Shown here in pieces: positions 4,652 to 59,743 of a DNA stretch of 64,000 nucleotides. The DNA is from Kovacikia minuta CCNUW1 (GTDB lineage: Bacteria > Cyanobacteriota > Cyanobacteriia > Leptolyngbyales > Leptolyngbyaceae): the NCBI RefSeq assembly GCF_020091585.1, contig NZ_CP083582.1:5032536-5096535 (forward strand), given 5' to 3'. The notes beneath the pieces were generated by a model, which saw nothing but the letters and a program-made list of their open reading frames with translations, was not told where the DNA came from and made no database searches. Both the position numbers and the translations under genes were made by a program. Within the stretch, counting starts at the first letter, position 1, and each line of letters starts with the position of its first letter.

Positions 4652-5173
4652 ATGAACATCTTCCGACGCATGTGGGATACGGTTGGTTTGGGCGATCGCT
4701 TTGACGACGAGTACGAGTACGAGTACGAAGAAGAATTGCCTGAGGGGTTTTATGCTTCCAACGGCAACTATCCCGCAGAACAACGACCAACCCCTCCAAG
4801 TAACGTAGTAGGCATGCCCAATCGCAATCTGGGGCATACCGAAATGTGCCTGATGGAGCCTCGGACATTTGAAGAAATGCCGCAAGCGGTAATTGCGCTA
4901 CGGGAAAGGAAGTCTATCATCCTGAGCTTAGGATTGATGGACCCGGACACGGCACAGCGATGTGTCGATTTTGTGGCGGGTGCTGCCTTTGCGGTTGATG
5001 GTCACCAGGAACGACTGGGTGAGCATATTTTTCTGTTTACTCCCAGCTTTGTGCAAATCAGCAGTTATCCCTCAGCAAGTACGGATACTGCCCGTTCCCC
5101 TGTTCCCCCTCCGACCCAAATTAACCCCCCTGCCCCCAACTGGAATGGGGACAAATCACGAATTGTGCAATAG
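4652..5173 (+). CDS. sepF: cell division protein SepF
   Basis: The 173-residue protein starts [15 protein letters not shown], an amphipathic membrane-targeting helix, followed by an acidic linker ([13 protein letters not shown]) and a SepF/DUF552 core at about 70-150 (REPRTFEE-like block, then [20 protein letters not shown]). SepF anchors and bundles FtsZ at the membrane; in cyanobacteria (also called Cdv2) it is important for division. The linker contains three tandem GAGTAC units, a small coding microsatellite. A Pro-rich tail follows the core. ftsZ lies 33 kb away in this window. Confidence 0.93.
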
Positions 5174-7112: not shown

Positions 7113-8690
7113 GTGGAATTGCAAAGCCCAAAAGTTGTTGTGATTGGGGCGGGCTGGGCTGGGTTAGGAGCAACCTATCACCTAGCCAAACAGGGATATG
7201 ATGTCACGCTTTTAGAGGCGGGTTCCTACCCCGGTGGGCTGGTGGCTGGTTGGAAAACGGCTCAGGGGAGATCGGTAGAAGCGGGAATTCATGGGTTCTG
7301 GTATCCGTATCGCAATATCTTCTCGCTCATCAATGAATTGGGAATCAATCCTTTTACAACCTGGACCCGTTCTTCTCAATATTCTCCCGCCGGATTAGAA
7401 GTAGAGTCACCGATTTTCCAGGATTTACCCCGTCTTCCGACTCCACTTGGCACCTTTCTTTATCCCCAGTTTCAGCGGTTGCCCTTGAGCGATCGCCTTT
7501 CCGCTCTGCCCTTGCTCTCGGCGCTGGTGGATTTTGATAACTCCGATGATGCCTGGCAGCGCTATGACCCGGTGACTGCCCGTGAACTGTTCAAAACCTT
7601 TGGTGTTTCCGCCCGCCTTTACCGTGACTCCTTTGAACCAATGTTGCTCGTTGGTTTGTTTGCTCCTGGTGAACAATGTTCCGCTGCGGCTGCTTTAGGA
7701 ATGCTCTACTTCTTTATCCTGGCGCACCAGTCTGATTTTGATGTGGTCTGGTGCCGAGGCACTGTGGGTGAGCAAATCTTTCGCCCCTGGATCGATCGCA
7801 TTCAGCAGGCTGGGGGGAAAGTGCTGACCAATCGGCGGGTGACGGATCTAATTTTGGGGAACCAGGAGTCAGCAGTCAGCAGTCAGGAGGCAATTCAACA
7901 TTCAAAATCCAACATTCAAAATTCTCCCCCCGCCCACCTCCCCATTACTGGTGTTGTCTGTGGCGATGAAGTTTTCGATGCAGATGCCGTGATTTTTGCT
8001 GTGGGTGTCACAGGAATGCAGAAAATTGTCAGCAACAGCCTGACACTTCAAAGTCGGCGGGAGTTTCGGGAGGTCATGAATCTAGGGGCGATCGATGTGC
8101 TGGCAACACGGCTATGGTTTGATCGTAAAATTTCCATCCCACGCCCTTCCAATGCATGCTTTGGTTTTGATGCCACCACAGGTTGGACGTTTTTTGACTT
8201 GAATGCCTTGCACGATGAATACCTGAACGAACCTGGGAGTGTGGTTGAGGTAGATTTTTACCATGCTAATCAGTTTTTGCCTCTGGATGACGAAACAATT
8301 GGGGCGATCGCCCACCGTTATCTGGCAACCTGTGTTCCTGCTTTCCAAACCGCCACTGTAATTGACCGTAGCGTGATTCGCCTGCCCAAAGCTGTGACTC
8401 ACTTTGCCCCTGGCAGTTACCGCTCCCTGTTGCCTGCTGTCACAAGTTTTGAAAATGTATTTATGAGTGGCGATTGGGTCATTACCCGCCACGGTTCCTG
8501 GTCCCAGGAGAAAGCCTACGTCACAGGTCTAGAAGCGGCAAACCTGATCATCGATCGCTTTCAATTTGGCACCAAAGCGACCATTATCCCCATAGAACCC
8601 GACGAACCGCATATTCAAATCGCCCGATCGCTAACCCGTTGGGTGCGCGGTTGGGGCAAAGCGCTTTTGCCTGACTTCTGGCTACCGTAA
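7113..8690 (+). CDS. FAD-dependent oxidoreductase, carotenoid desaturase-like
   Basis: The 525-residue protein opens with the dinucleotide-binding motif VVVIGAGWAGLGATYHLA and an acidic end of the second strand (LLEAGSYPGG), as in phytoene/zeta-carotene desaturases and related amine oxidases. It ends with the FAD-contacting block FMSGDWVITRHGSWSQEKAY. The exact substrate is unclear. The GTG start at 7113 follows an AAAGGGG site; an ATG at 7108 is out of frame. Residues about 249-277 (7858-7945) are an insertion encoded by heptamer-type repeat DNA, rich in Ser, Gln, Asn and His, probably a surface loop. Confidence 0.8.
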   Translation: MELQSPKVVVIGAGWAGLGATYHLAKQGYDVTLLEAGSYPGGLVAGWKTAQGRSVEAGIHGFWYPYRNIFSLINELGINPFTTWTRSSQYSPAGLEVESPIFQDLPRLPTPLGTFLYPQFQRLPLSDRLSALPLLSALVDFDNSDDAWQRYDPVTARELFKTFGVSARLYRDSFEPMLLVGLFAPGEQCSAAAALGMLYFFILAHQSDFDVVWCRGTVGEQIFRPWIDRIQQAGGKVLTNRRVTDLILGNQESAVSSQEAIQHSKSNIQNSPPAHLPITGVVCGDEVFDADAVIFAVGVTGMQKIVSNSLTLQSRREFREVMNLGAIDVLATRLWFDRKISIPRPSNACFGFDATTGWTFFDLNALHDEYLNEPGSVVEVDFYHANQFLPLDDETIGAIAHRYLATCVPAFQTATVIDRSVIRLPKAVTHFAPGSYRSLLPAVTSFENVFMSGDWVITRHGSWSQEKAYVTGLEAANLIIDRFQFGTKATIIPIEPDEPHIQIARSLTRWVRGWGKALLPDFWLP

Positions 8691-24073: not shown

Positions 24074-24823
24074 ATGCTCCTCATGGAACACCCCTTCGAA
24101 ATTATCTTTCCCAACGGCTCCACCGCAGAGGTTATCCAGCTTCATTCATCTGCTGACTTAGATTTCATTTTGCAGAAATTGGGGATTGATGATCAGCGTC
24201 CGGCAATGGTTGTAATTGGGGGTGCCAGCAAGCTCAGCGAAGCAGACTTTAATCGAGTCCGCCAACTGTTTGCTAAGGTTTTAGCCCCTCTAGCACAGAA
24301 ATGGCGGGCAGCAGTGGTGGATGGCGGCACTGATGCAGGGGTAATGCGGCTCATGGGGCAAGCAAGGATGGAAATTGGCGCAGATTTTCCCCTAGTTGGT
24401 GTCATTCCGATCGGTCTGGCGACCCTGCCTAATCAAACTGCCCCTTCCCCAGAAGCTGCTCCCCTGGAAGCAAACCACACCCATTTTGTGCTGGTTCCTG
24501 GCTCCCGTTGGGGAGATGAGTCGATGTGGATTGCCTCGATCGCCAGTGCCATTGCCGATGCCACCGCTTCCGTAACCGTCCTGGTTAACGGTGGTGAGGT
24601 TGCCTGGAGAGATGCTTCAGAAAGCGTCGAAGCCGATCGCTCCCTGATTGTGGTTGCTGGCAGCGGACGCACAGCAGATATCCTGGCAAAGGCTGTGCGC
24701 GGTCAATCAACAGATCAACGGGCAGATGAAATTGTTTCCTCCGGACTTGTGCAGGCGATCGATCTGGAAGCTGGAGCCAGTGCTTTTGCCATTATGATCG
24801 AGGAAATTTTCGCAGCTAGGTGA
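24074..24823 (+). CDS. SLOG-superfamily (LSDAT-type) putative nucleotide-sensing protein
   Basis: The 249-residue protein is a Rossmannoid fold of the SLOG/LSDAT type. Visible nucleotide-binding blocks are MVVIGGASKLSEADF, RAAVVDGGTDAGVMRLMG (the GGxxxGxM-like loop), FVLVPGSRWGDES, VTVLVNGGEVAWRDA and LIVVAGSGRTADILA. This domain is shared with the N-terminus of TRPM channels and the LOG/DprA group. Prokaryotic members are predicted to bind or cleave a nucleotide-derived ligand in conflict or signalling systems. It is followed by a SLATT-type membrane protein, the expected partner. ATG 24074 or 24083 may be the start. Confidence 0.78.
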   Translation: MLLMEHPFEIIFPNGSTAEVIQLHSSADLDFILQKLGIDDQRPAMVVIGGASKLSEADFNRVRQLFAKVLAPLAQKWRAAVVDGGTDAGVMRLMGQARMEIGADFPLVGVIPIGLATLPNQTAPSPEAAPLEANHTHFVLVPGSRWGDESMWIASIASAIADATASVTVLVNGGEVAWRDASESVEADRSLIVVAGSGRTADILAKAVRGQSTDQRADEIVSSGLVQAIDLEAGASAFAIMIEEIFAAR

Positions 24824-24945
24824 AAATGGGATGTGGGGAGTGGGGAGTGAGAAAATTTTGAATTTTGAATTGGGACTAGTGCTAAGTACTATTCTCCAGT
24901 ACCTACCACCTACCACCTACCACCTACCATCTGCCATCTGCGATC
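24824..24945. repeat. heptanucleotide repeat between the SLOG and SLATT genes
   Basis: GAATTTT units are followed by CTACCAC repeated about five times (24904-24930). The array lies within the presumed two-gene unit. Confidence 0.75.
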
Positions 24946-26073
24946 ATGACCAACGCATCCGATCCCAATCAAGTCAGTCGGAGCCAAATTCTTGAAGATG
25001 CCTGGTTTCGATTTGCTAAGTATGACAAAAATGCCACGATCGCCCAAAAGCGCTTCATTCGACAGCGAAAGTGGACACTAATTTTAGGGGTTGCAGCCAC
25101 AACACTGGCTGTTTTGTATTCAGTCCTGGAGGGTTACTTAAATTCTAAAATGACTGTTTTTCCTACCTGGACTGATGAAAAGCGGTTGCGGAACTTTCTA
25201 GATAGCTTTCATAACCTGGTCGTGGTGATTCCAATCCTGATCACGATTCTGGTAGCATTTTCGGTCAAATTTAATATGGGCATCAATTGGGTGATGCTGC
25301 GAAGTAGCGCCGAAGCATTAAAAAAGGAAATTTTTCGCTACCGGATGCAGGTGGATGAATATAGCCCTTCAAAGGTAACGGTTCAAGAATCGCGGGATGT
25401 TCGATTAGCCAAGAAGGTGAAGACCATCAGTAAGCGGTTGATGGAAACTCCCGTCAACCAAACCGATCTGCTACCCTACAAAGGAAACCTTCCCCCTGTT
25501 TACAGCATCTCCGCCAATGACGATGGCTTTAGTGACCTGACGGCTGAGCAATATCTGATCTGGCGTGTTGAAGACCAATTCAGCTATTACCAAAAGAAGG
25601 CAGCCCGACTGGGTAGGGAATATCGCCATTCCCAGGCGTTAATCATTATTTTGGGTGGCGTTGGAGCATTGTTGGCTGCATTAAAGTTTGATGTTTGGAT
25701 TGCAGTCAGCAACGCCCTGGCAGCCGCATTCACCAGCTACCTGGAGTTTAAGCGTGTAGAAACCAATGTCATTGCTTGCAACATATCGGCAGCAGATTTG
25801 TATGATATTCGCGTCTGGTGGCATTCTCTTTCGCCCGAAATCAGAAAACTCCAAACCAGTGTAGAAACCCTGGTTAGCAGCACTGAGGCAGTTCTGCAAA
25901 CAGAGAATTCCGGGTGGCTTCAGGAAATGCGTGAGGCATTATCCGAAATATACGGCGAGAAAAAGGACACCAAAAAGGAGATTCACCCTGCCCACAATGG
26001 TCAACCGTTGGATGATCCGGTGCTGGCACCACTTCAACCGGAAGCAAAAAGGGGAGAAGGGAGTAAGGAGTAG
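24946..26073 (+). CDS. SLATT/DUF4231-type four-span membrane protein (putative effector)
   Basis: The 375-residue protein has two separated pairs of transmembrane helices: about 43-62 and 91-108, then 229-247 and 250-268. Each pair is preceded and followed by charged helices (RFAKYDKNATIAQKRFIRQR before the first; EFKRVETNVIACNISAADLY after the last). This two-helix module is the SLATT/DUF4231 pattern. It has been predicted to form pores or membrane-perturbing assemblies controlled by SLOG or SMODS nucleotide modules. The C-terminal tail is charged and low in complexity. Its position behind the SLOG gene supports a functional pair. No cytotoxicity can be inferred from sequence alone. Confidence 0.72.
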   Translation: MTNASDPNQVSRSQILEDAWFRFAKYDKNATIAQKRFIRQRKWTLILGVAATTLAVLYSVLEGYLNSKMTVFPTWTDEKRLRNFLDSFHNLVVVIPILITILVAFSVKFNMGINWVMLRSSAEALKKEIFRYRMQVDEYSPSKVTVQESRDVRLAKKVKTISKRLMETPVNQTDLLPYKGNLPPVYSISANDDGFSDLTAEQYLIWRVEDQFSYYQKKAARLGREYRHSQALIIILGGVGALLAALKFDVWIAVSNALAAAFTSYLEFKRVETNVIACNISAADLYDIRVWWHSLSPEIRKLQTSVETLVSSTEAVLQTENSGWLQEMREALSEIYGEKKDTKKEIHPAHNGQPLDDPVLAPLQPEAKRGEGSKE

Positions 26074-36879: not shown

Positions 36880-37406
<527 letters not shown>

Positions 37407-45051: not shown

Positions 45052-45204
45052 GGGTCAGGTGATAGGTGGTAGGTGTCAGGTGGTAGGTGGTAGGTGTCAG
45101 GTGGTAGGTGGTAGGTGGTAGGTGTCAGGTTTTATCCCTCATCCCTCATCCCTCATCCCTCATCCCCATCCCTCATCCCTCATCCCCCATTCCCCCTCTT
45201 ACCT
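45052..45204. repeat. heptanucleotide repeat region
   Basis: GGTGGTA/GGTGTCA units (45056-45128) are followed by CCTCATC units (45136-45183). The array precedes the second Uma2 gene and extends its open frame upstream artificially. Confidence 0.8.
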
Positions 45205-59711: not shown

Positions 59712-59743
59712 TGCCCTACCACCTACCACCTACCACCTACCAC
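59712..59743. repeat. CTACCAC heptanucleotide array within the cluster
   Basis: About four tandem CTACCAC units precede the ATG of the last glycosyltransferase, so they lie in the transcribed leader or in the place of its ribosome site. Confidence 0.75.

What the first reader, a model, noticed from the sequence alone, without database searches (positions are those of the whole stretch)
24074..26073. SLOG (LSDAT) plus SLATT/DUF4231 pair: candidate nucleotide-gated membrane effector
A Rossmannoid protein with GG-rich nucleotide-binding loops is followed on the same strand by a protein with two separate pairs of membrane helices. Proteins of these classes have been predicted by comparative genomics to form conflict or immunity systems in which a SLOG module senses or processes a nucleotide and a SLATT module damages or gates the membrane. 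Here the membrane protein has a doubled two-helix module, and the pair sits next to an IS110 element and repeats. The function in cyanobacteria is essentially untested.
Basis: partly seen in the sequence, partly recalled or inferred. Interest (0 to 1): 0.7.

Follow-up and report, generated by a model that had tools for sequence, protein, structure and literature searches.

The report
Nucleotide-sensor and membrane-effector gene pair
Two neighbouring cyanobacterial genes encode a free-standing copy of the nucleotide-sensing domain of TRPM ion channels and a membrane protein that travels with it; they probably form a two-part switch that alters the cell membrane when a particular nucleotide appears, but this has not been tested here.

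Summary
ORF 24074-24823(+) is LSDAT_prok (Pfam E=2.3e-68), a stand-alone TRPM MHR1/2 fold (best model pLDDT 89; Z 24 to the TRPM2 chanzyme). ORF 24946-26073(+) carries DUF4231 and SLATT_1 in tandem.

The pairing is real. Searching from the SLATT side, 6 of 6 close relatives directly follow an LSDAT gene. Fused LSDAT-SLATT proteins occur on two plasmids (Chloroflexota, Bacteroidota) and, broken, in this genome. Over 244 cyanobacteria LSDAT and strong DUF4231 co-occur (20 both, 1 and 1 alone, 222 neither). In 142 more genomes all 5 with strong DUF4231 had LSDAT. In one genome a patatin stands beside LSDAT instead.

New context: in relatives the pair is a cassette between a NAD(P)H-hydrate repair gene and a kinase-TPR gene. 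That site is empty in one genome and holds a macro plus ADPR-pyrophosphatase-like Nudix cassette in another.

Most likely mechanism, inferred: LSDAT binds an ADP-ribose-like nucleotide and switches a SLATT membrane effector, as already predicted for these families. Ligand, pore and defence are untested. IS110 is incidental. LSDAT lacks a nearby SLATT in 28 of 64 copies.

The parts
24074..24823 (+). LSDAT_prok (SLOG in TRPM) protein, 249 aa; start more likely ATG at 24083
   Evidence: Pfam 2.3e-68; AF2 best of five models pLDDT 89.2, pTM 0.89; VIA Z 24.0 to TRPM2 chanzyme 8sre, 244 residues, rmsd 2.6, 28% identity; start compared with relatives
24668..24670 (+). codon of R199 in the GSGR loop; aligns with human TRPM2 R358, which contacts ADPR phosphates
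   Evidence: invariant 53 of 53; alignment to 6mix; R358 role read in PMC6759353 passages
24946..26073 (+). tandem SLATT membrane protein, 375 aa
   Evidence: Pfam/NCBIfam over cut-off; six relatives 63-71% identical
25018..25371 (+). N-terminal DUF4231-type 2TM module (aa 25-142; hydrophobic segments from aa 43 and 91)
   Evidence: PF14015 1.4e-11; hydropathy
25552..25917 (+). C-terminal SLATT_1 2TM module (aa 203-324; hydrophobic segment from aa 232, and a weaker one further on that passes the threshold only in 4 of 6 relatives)
   Evidence: PF18181 3e-23; hydropathy
24824..24945 (.). 122-bp gap between the genes, holding a CTACCAC heptamer array (24903-24936); the gap is -29 to 55 bp in the other 10 tandem pairs

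Best explanation
A two-gene sensor/effector module. The LSDAT protein is a free-standing TRPM MHR1/2-type clamshell that binds a small nucleotide, most likely an NAD-derived one such as ADP-ribose or a cyclic or base-exchanged derivative. Binding changes its contact with the tandem SLATT protein, whose two 2TM hairpins sit in the membrane and then open or assemble a conductance that depolarises or kills the cell, most likely as an immune or stress-death response. Shown: domain identity, LSDAT fold (model), pairing in cis, co-occurrence, natural fusions, cassette-like gain or loss. Inferred: physical interaction, ligand, pore, and the biological trigger.
For: Families and fold. From the SLATT side: 6 of 6 close relatives and 8 of 10 SLATT_1 places in 244 genomes lie beside, or are fused to, LSDAT. 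In the LSDAT survey 11 unfused tandem SLATT genes lie directly downstream on the same strand, gaps -29 to 122 bp. Fusions on Chlorohelix and Hymenobacter plasmids and, broken, in this genome. Co-occurrence 20/1/1/222, Fisher 4e-27; in 142 further genomes 5/3/0/134, p=1.2e-7. G225, the one LSDAT genome lacking strong DUF4231 in the first set, has a patatin (CBASS phospholipase-effector-like) 56 bp downstream. Tandem-linked LSDATs form one clade, 98/88, 8 rows. R199 invariant, 53 of 53. NAD/ADPR context: nnr upstream in 9 of 57 loci; macro + ADPRase-like Nudix cassette at the same site; TIR-WD40 genes near LSDAT in at least L048, L065 and L104. SLATT is required for DRT10 phage defence (preprint PMC12632851, passages).
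Against: 28 of 64 LSDAT gene copies have no SLATT within the fetched flank; in five of these the operon-like partner is a GAF-histidine kinase. 5 of 28 LSDAT genomes in the order and G311 in the wider phylum draw lack any DUF4231 match. Two Embleya plasmids carry LSDAT; the one that was read shows no SLATT match. Human TRPM2 R302 lies in a stretch that does not align, and the chanzyme itself has Leu at the R358 position, so ligand identity is open. PADLOC has no good model for either protein; the window's flanks are ordinary genes; no LSDAT match in phage records and no relative of either protein in viral contigs. The nnr linkage lies mostly in one lineage and may be synteny by descent; none of eight loci added later has it. 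The patatin exchange is a single case. The SLATT model is poor, pLDDT 42.7.
Confidence: 0.6

Rival explanations
1. A physiological ligand-gated conductance rather than an immune effector: LSDAT reads NAD(P)/ADPR status or damage and the SLATT protein adjusts ion flux, much as TRPM2 reports oxidative stress.
For: Upstream neighbour nnr, an NAD(P)H-hydrate repair gene, in 7 of 8 tandem loci of the order; GAF-histidine kinases precede LSDAT in L105, L111, L121, L122, L123 and L124; fold is that of TRPM MHR1/2.
Against: Patchy gain and loss as a cassette, occupation of one site by an alternative ADPR-type module, and one exchange for patatin are more typical of conflict systems.
Confidence: 0.2
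2. LSDAT is an enzyme (LOG/DprA-like nucleotide hydrolase) that makes the signal, and SLATT is the receptor.
For: SLOG proteins include the LOG hydrolases (recalled); conserved polar residues D83 (53 of 53), D87 (51), D180 (49) and R199 (53).
Against: The LOG PGGxGTxxE motif (recalled) is not there: the loop that I take to correspond reads NGGEVAWRDA (sequence). Closest solved relatives are the MHR1/2 domains of TRPM channels.
Confidence: 0.13
3. The two genes are neighbours with unrelated housekeeping roles.
For: 28 of 64 LSDAT gene copies lack a nearby SLATT; window flanks are UreF, CAAX-protease-like, TGT and CobS genes.
Against: SLATT-led search 6 of 6 paired; fusions in three phyla, one of them broken; concordant presence and absence.
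Confidence: 0.04

Closest known systems
SLOG(LSDAT)-SLATT conflict systems predicted by Burroughs et al. 2015 (recalled; paper not held; cited in passages of PMC7159879, and PMC13143021)
   Same: LSDAT sensor next to a SLATT 2TM effector. PMC9503650 (passage) already predicts SLATT to be an ADPr-derivative-regulated effector of membrane permeability.
   Different: Here the partner is a tandem DUF4231+SLATT_1 protein; whether the 2015 paper lists this tandem form could not be checked.
TRPM2 channel and TRPM2 chanzyme (MHR1/2 + channel + NUDT9-H)
   Same: LSDAT superposes on MHR1/2 over nearly its whole length; GSGR arginine shared with human TRPM2.
   Different: Separate polypeptide, SLATT instead of a TRP pore, no Nudix in the window pair. 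In two relatives a Nudix sits in another cassette at the same site. The chanzyme lacks the GSGR arginine.
Thoeris (TIR ThsB with SIR2-SLOG or TM-macro ThsA; PMC11204291 abstract and passages; PMC10022894 passages)
   Same: A SLOG domain (binds 3'cADPR in ThsA) or TM-macro effector reads an NAD-derived signal; a macro protein with membrane segments occupies the same chromosomal site in a relative.
   Different: No TIR, SIR2 or macro domain beside the window pair; SLOG and membrane part are separate genes; the SLOG is of LSDAT type.
DRT10 RT-ncRNA-SLATT phage defence (preprint PMC12632851, passages)
   Same: SLATT as required component, proposed membrane effector.
   Different: Different partner; the DRT SLATT model of PADLOC hits the window protein only at E=0.049.

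Membership tests
LSDAT_prok (PF18171) | profile match above curated cut-off over the domain | tested here: met
   229.8 bits against 25.4, profile 1-191 of 195
LSDAT / TRPM MHR1/2 | two-lobed MHR1/2 fold | tested here: met
   Z 24.0, 244 residues, 8sre
TRPM2-type ADPR sensor | ADPR-contacting residues Y295, R302, R358 (human numbering) | tested here: inconclusive
   R358 equivalent R199 present 53 of 53; Y295/R302 region does not align; chanzyme has Leu at the R358 position
SLATT_1 (PF18181, NF033634) | profile match above cut-off | tested here: met
   82.6 against 26.3; 106.2 against 41
DUF4231 (PF14015) | profile match above cut-off | tested here: met
   45.2 against 24.7
Tandem SLATT by internal duplication | the two halves are homologous to each other | tested here: inconclusive
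   hhalign probability 1.5% between halves, shallow profiles; second half to single DUF4231 68%, first half 12.6%
Thoeris | TIR ThsB next to SIR2-SLOG or TM-macro ThsA | tested here: not met
   no TIR, SIR2 or macro domain in the window pair or the eleven neighbouring ORFs scanned
Known anti-phage system in PADLOC v2 | model match | tested here: not met
   no LSDAT match; SLATT only 0.049
Nucleotide-gated membrane effector | ligand-dependent membrane permeabilisation | not testable with these tools
   needs biochemistry

The most novel reading that the evidence does not exclude
A split bacterial counterpart of TRPM2: LSDAT reads an ADP-ribose-type or damaged-NAD(P) signal and drives a tandem-SLATT membrane effector. 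The module is carried as an exchangeable cassette at a site beside NAD(P)H-hydrate repair, where two other genomes carry a TM-macro or TIR-macro plus Nudix cassette, so that the TRPM2 parts list (SLOG, membrane part, Nudix) is assembled there gene by gene.
Probability: 0.25. Interest if true: 0.8.

Novelty: new variant of a known kind. Interest (0 to 1): 0.55.

Why it matters
The MHR1/2 domain of TRPM channels is homologous to bacterial SLOG proteins and was probably fused to the TRP channel in an early eukaryote (PMC13143021, passages). A free-standing, well-folded bacterial MHR1/2 with a regular membrane partner is small enough to assay directly. It would show whether nucleotide gating of a membrane by this domain predates TRPM channels, and what the ligand is. 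The ADPR-type cassettes found at one chromosomal site give a concrete ligand hypothesis.

Tried and rejected
IS110 as part of the module: rejected, because the seven closest pairs (L012-L017, L117) show no match to the window's IS110 or adjacent genes in the stretches read; the IS110 region has no plasmid match. Phage or viral carriage: no LSDAT match in 50,697 phage records (SLATT was not searched there) and no relative of either protein in viral contigs (close-relative scans only). Location beside tgt as a conserved site: not supported. The order tgt, 27478 ORF, cobS is shared by many relatives, but none of the 29 other tgt loci read (of 40 further tgt matches in 39 genomes) matched the pair within 1.5 kb.

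Structure of the SLATT protein: pLDDT 42.7, so no fold search was made with it. For LSDAT the five models had mean pLDDT 89.2, 82.3, 62.2, 61.5 and 55.5; only the best was used. The complex could not be modelled (single chains only). Homology between the two SLATT halves was not shown. Burroughs et al. 2015 could not be read. TIR-WD40 adjacency (at least 3 loci) was not tested against a background rate and is only suggestive; among 49 operon-like neighbours of LSDAT, PADLOC TIR models matched up to 3 and Pfam DUF4231 14 (49 of the 57 rows, leaving out seven tandem SLATT rows and one duplicate). L061 has a short ORF with a predicted membrane segment after LSDAT with no family hit.

Limits of the counts. 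The 11-of-11 figure for tandem genes in the LSDAT survey is biased, since most were read because an LSDAT was there; the SLATT-led counts (6 of 6; 8 of 10 SLATT_1 places, the two misses being G164:C8 and G054:C13:222852) are the fairer test. The 1e-15 limit for 'strong' DUF4231 was chosen after seeing and then held fixed for the 142 added genomes. At E<=1e-3 the tables are 20/1/22/201 and 7/1/9/125. I take the 386-genome draw to contain the 244, since it lists all their positives; I did not check the negatives one by one. Genomes are related, so the p-values are not those of independent trials. The tree and the conservation count left out LSDATs shorter than 220 aa (L132, L133) and the broken L010, and were made before L169-L176 were fetched. 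one search has 66 rows for 64 genes because two broken genes give two rows each.

Full report
What is there. ORF 24074-24823(+) is an LSDAT_prok protein and ORF 24946-26073(+) carries a DUF4231 module followed by a SLATT_1 module. The best LSDAT model is confident (pLDDT 89.2, pTM 0.89; the other four models 82.3 to 55.5). It superposes on the MHR1/2 region of TRPM channels over nearly its whole length: VIA Z 24.0, rmsd 2.6, 244 residues and 28% identity to the TRPM2 chanzyme 8sre. By sequence, the 20 best PDB rows are TRPM channels. The SLATT model is poor (42.7), so only its helix pattern is used. Three hydrophobic segments are strong in the window protein; a fourth passes the same threshold in 4 of the 6 closest relatives.

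Anatomy. In 53 of 53 LSDATs compared, the GSGR arginine (R199) is invariant, as are D83, G85, T86, G89, H135, P142, N172, G173 and G174. In the alignment R199 falls on R358 of human TRPM2 (numbering counted from the printed alignment). That residue contacts the phosphates of ADPR in the MHR1/2 cleft (PMC6759353, passages). Of four double mutants that include it or its equivalent, three (zebrafish, sea anemone, human R304A+R358A) lost ADPR gating and one (human R302A+R358A) was reported without effect (PMC6914804, passages). Against a simple transfer of ligand: R302 lies in a stretch that does not align, and the chanzyme has leucine at this position.

Pairing in cis. I read the surroundings of all 64 LSDAT gene copies found in 55 cyanobacterial genomes (neighbourhoods; tally). 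Tandem SLATT directly downstream: 11. Fused and frameshifted: 1 (own genome, L010). Single SLATT downstream on the same strand within 700 bp: 20. Other arrangements: 4. None in the fetched flank: 28, one of them (L058) 279 bp from a contig end. The genomes of 21 of these 28 copies carry a DUF4231 match elsewhere. The 11 tandem pairs come from the window's own family and from families f26 and f15. Because most were reached through LSDAT, the fairer test is from the SLATT side: all 6 close relatives found by the SLATT protein follow LSDAT, and 8 of 10 SLATT_1 places in 244 genomes lie beside or are fused to LSDAT. Intact fusions, recognised with profiles built here, lie on plasmids of Chlorohelix (Chloroflexota) and Hymenobacter (Bacteroidota), annotated only as DUF4231 proteins. 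These are 2 of the 4 plasmid records with LSDAT; the other two are Embleya, and the one read shows no SLATT match. In a tree of 55 LSDATs the eight then known tandem-linked ones form one clade (98/88; one change against 7.7 in shuffles).

Pairing in trans. Over 244 genomes LSDAT occurs in 21 and strong DUF4231 (E<=1e-15) in 21, with 20 shared (Fisher 4e-27). In 142 further genomes LSDAT occurs in 8 and strong DUF4231 in 5, all 5 shared (p=1.2e-7). Two of the remaining three LSDAT genomes, G315 and G378, have a weakly scoring tandem gene directly behind LSDAT. The last, G311, with a short 202-aa LSDAT ORF, has no DUF4231 match. In the window's order 28 of 42 genomes have LSDAT and 23 of these have DUF4231 at E<=1e-3; 2 have DUF4231 alone. 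As far as genomes are listed, presence and absence agree within genera g9, g16 and g20, less so in g22 because of G311. A weaker DUF4231 family is the best match in 21 genomes, none with LSDAT. These tests treat related genomes as independent, so the p-values overstate the case.

Effector exchange. G225 is the only LSDAT genome of the first 244 without strong DUF4231; there a patatin gene follows LSDAT by 56 bp on the same strand, and it matches CBASS phospholipase-effector models at 2.7e-49. One membrane-attacking partner seems to replace another, but it is one case.

A chromosomal site. In seven of the eight tandem loci of the order, nnr (YjeF_N + Carb_kinase, NAD(P)H-hydrate repair) lies upstream on the same strand, in L012 and L117 overlapping the LSDAT ORF as drawn. 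In L017 it lies 2.7 kb away. It also precedes LSDAT in L047 and L053, which belong to other LSDAT groups, making 9 of 57 loci; none of the eight loci added later has it. The own genome's nnr is elsewhere (L136). In G278 the same site is empty: nnr is followed directly by the kinase-TPR gene, and alignment of L013 to it breaks at 4708 and resumes at 7284, a stretch that holds the pair and no other ORF over 100 aa. In G275 that site instead holds a macro protein with two or three membrane segments and a Nudix protein, and L017 carries a TIR-macro plus Nudix cassette as well as the pair. The G275 Nudix matches ADP-ribose pyrophosphatases and NudK (3.8e-27 and 3.7e-27). TM-macro proteins are ADPR-binding Thoeris effectors (PMC11204291, abstract and passages). 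This is the main reason for proposing an NAD-derived ligand; a published prediction points the same way for SLATT in general (PMC9503650, passage). It rests on few genomes of one lineage, where the shared site may reflect common descent.

Mechanism. I take it as a sensor/effector pair: ligand binding closes the LSDAT clamshell, as ADPR does in TRPM2 (PMC6759353, passages), and this switches a SLATT membrane assembly. SLATT is required for phage defence in DRT10 (preprint PMC12632851, passages), which makes an immune role plausible but not shown here. The alternative that it serves ordinary NAD or redox signalling is real: five solo LSDATs sit 8-28 bp behind GAF-histidine kinases, and the window's neighbours are ordinary genes.

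Known or new. The LSDAT-SLATT pair type was predicted in 2015 (Burroughs et al., recalled, cited by papers whose passages I saw; the paper itself was not held). Paper searches for SLATT with SLOG (20 of 47 listed), LSDAT (all 15), SLATT domain with anti-phage and membrane (20 of 1,043), SLATT with cyanobacteria (all 6), SLATT with defence and pore terms (12 of 98) and TRPM with SLOG domain (both) listed no title or abstract that I recognised as an experimental study of such a pair; the library holds open-licence papers only. What is added here is the tandem variant with its fusions, the trans co-occurrence, the patatin case and the cassette site.

Noticed in passing
own genome C1:1478529-1479108 and on to 1477485 (L010:7402-9226, - strand): A second LSDAT-DUF4231-SLATT_1 gene in fused form, interrupted by a frameshift inside LSDAT; a two-partner-secretion (ShlB/POTRA) gene lies upstream.
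   Followed up: partly
own genome C1:164000-178000 (L137:4685-8568, - strand): Two adjacent large DUF4231/SLATT genes (749 and 542 aa) without LSDAT nearby; a similar two-gene set sits beside LSDAT in L066, L130 and L050. A possible trans partner of the solo LSDAT at C1:1631415.
   Followed up: partly
L134:4400-6074 and L017:2834-4667: Macro gene with membrane segments (L134) or TIR-macro gene (L017), each paired with a Nudix gene (the L134 one ADP-ribose-pyrophosphatase-like) in the nnr/kinase-TPR site.
   Followed up: partly
L105, L121, L122, L123, L124: GAF-HisKA-HATPase histidine kinase ending 8-28 bp before LSDAT on the same strand; no SLATT nearby.
   Followed up: partly
L065:8229-12182, L048:4124-7330, L104:7127-9436: TIR-WD40 proteins next to or near LSDAT genes (one with three TIR stretches, ending 17 bp before LSDAT).
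   Followed up: no
L119:5962-6891, L127:5941-6933: Alpha/beta-hydrolase gene 59-85 bp upstream of LSDAT on the same strand in two genomes of one genus (G245, G246).
   Followed up: no
window 24903-24936, 37092-37139, 45067-45128, 59716-59742: CTACCAC heptamer arrays at several places; one lies in the gap between the two genes.
   Followed up: partly
window 26000-26073: The C-terminal tail of the window SLATT protein is 57-74 aa shorter than in the six closest relatives and ends in purine-rich sequence. Tandem proteins of L169-L171 (345-357 aa) are short as well, so the tail is not universal.
   Followed up: partly
L053:7503-9817: One single SLATT gene sandwiched between two different LSDAT genes in one operon-like run.
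   Followed up: no
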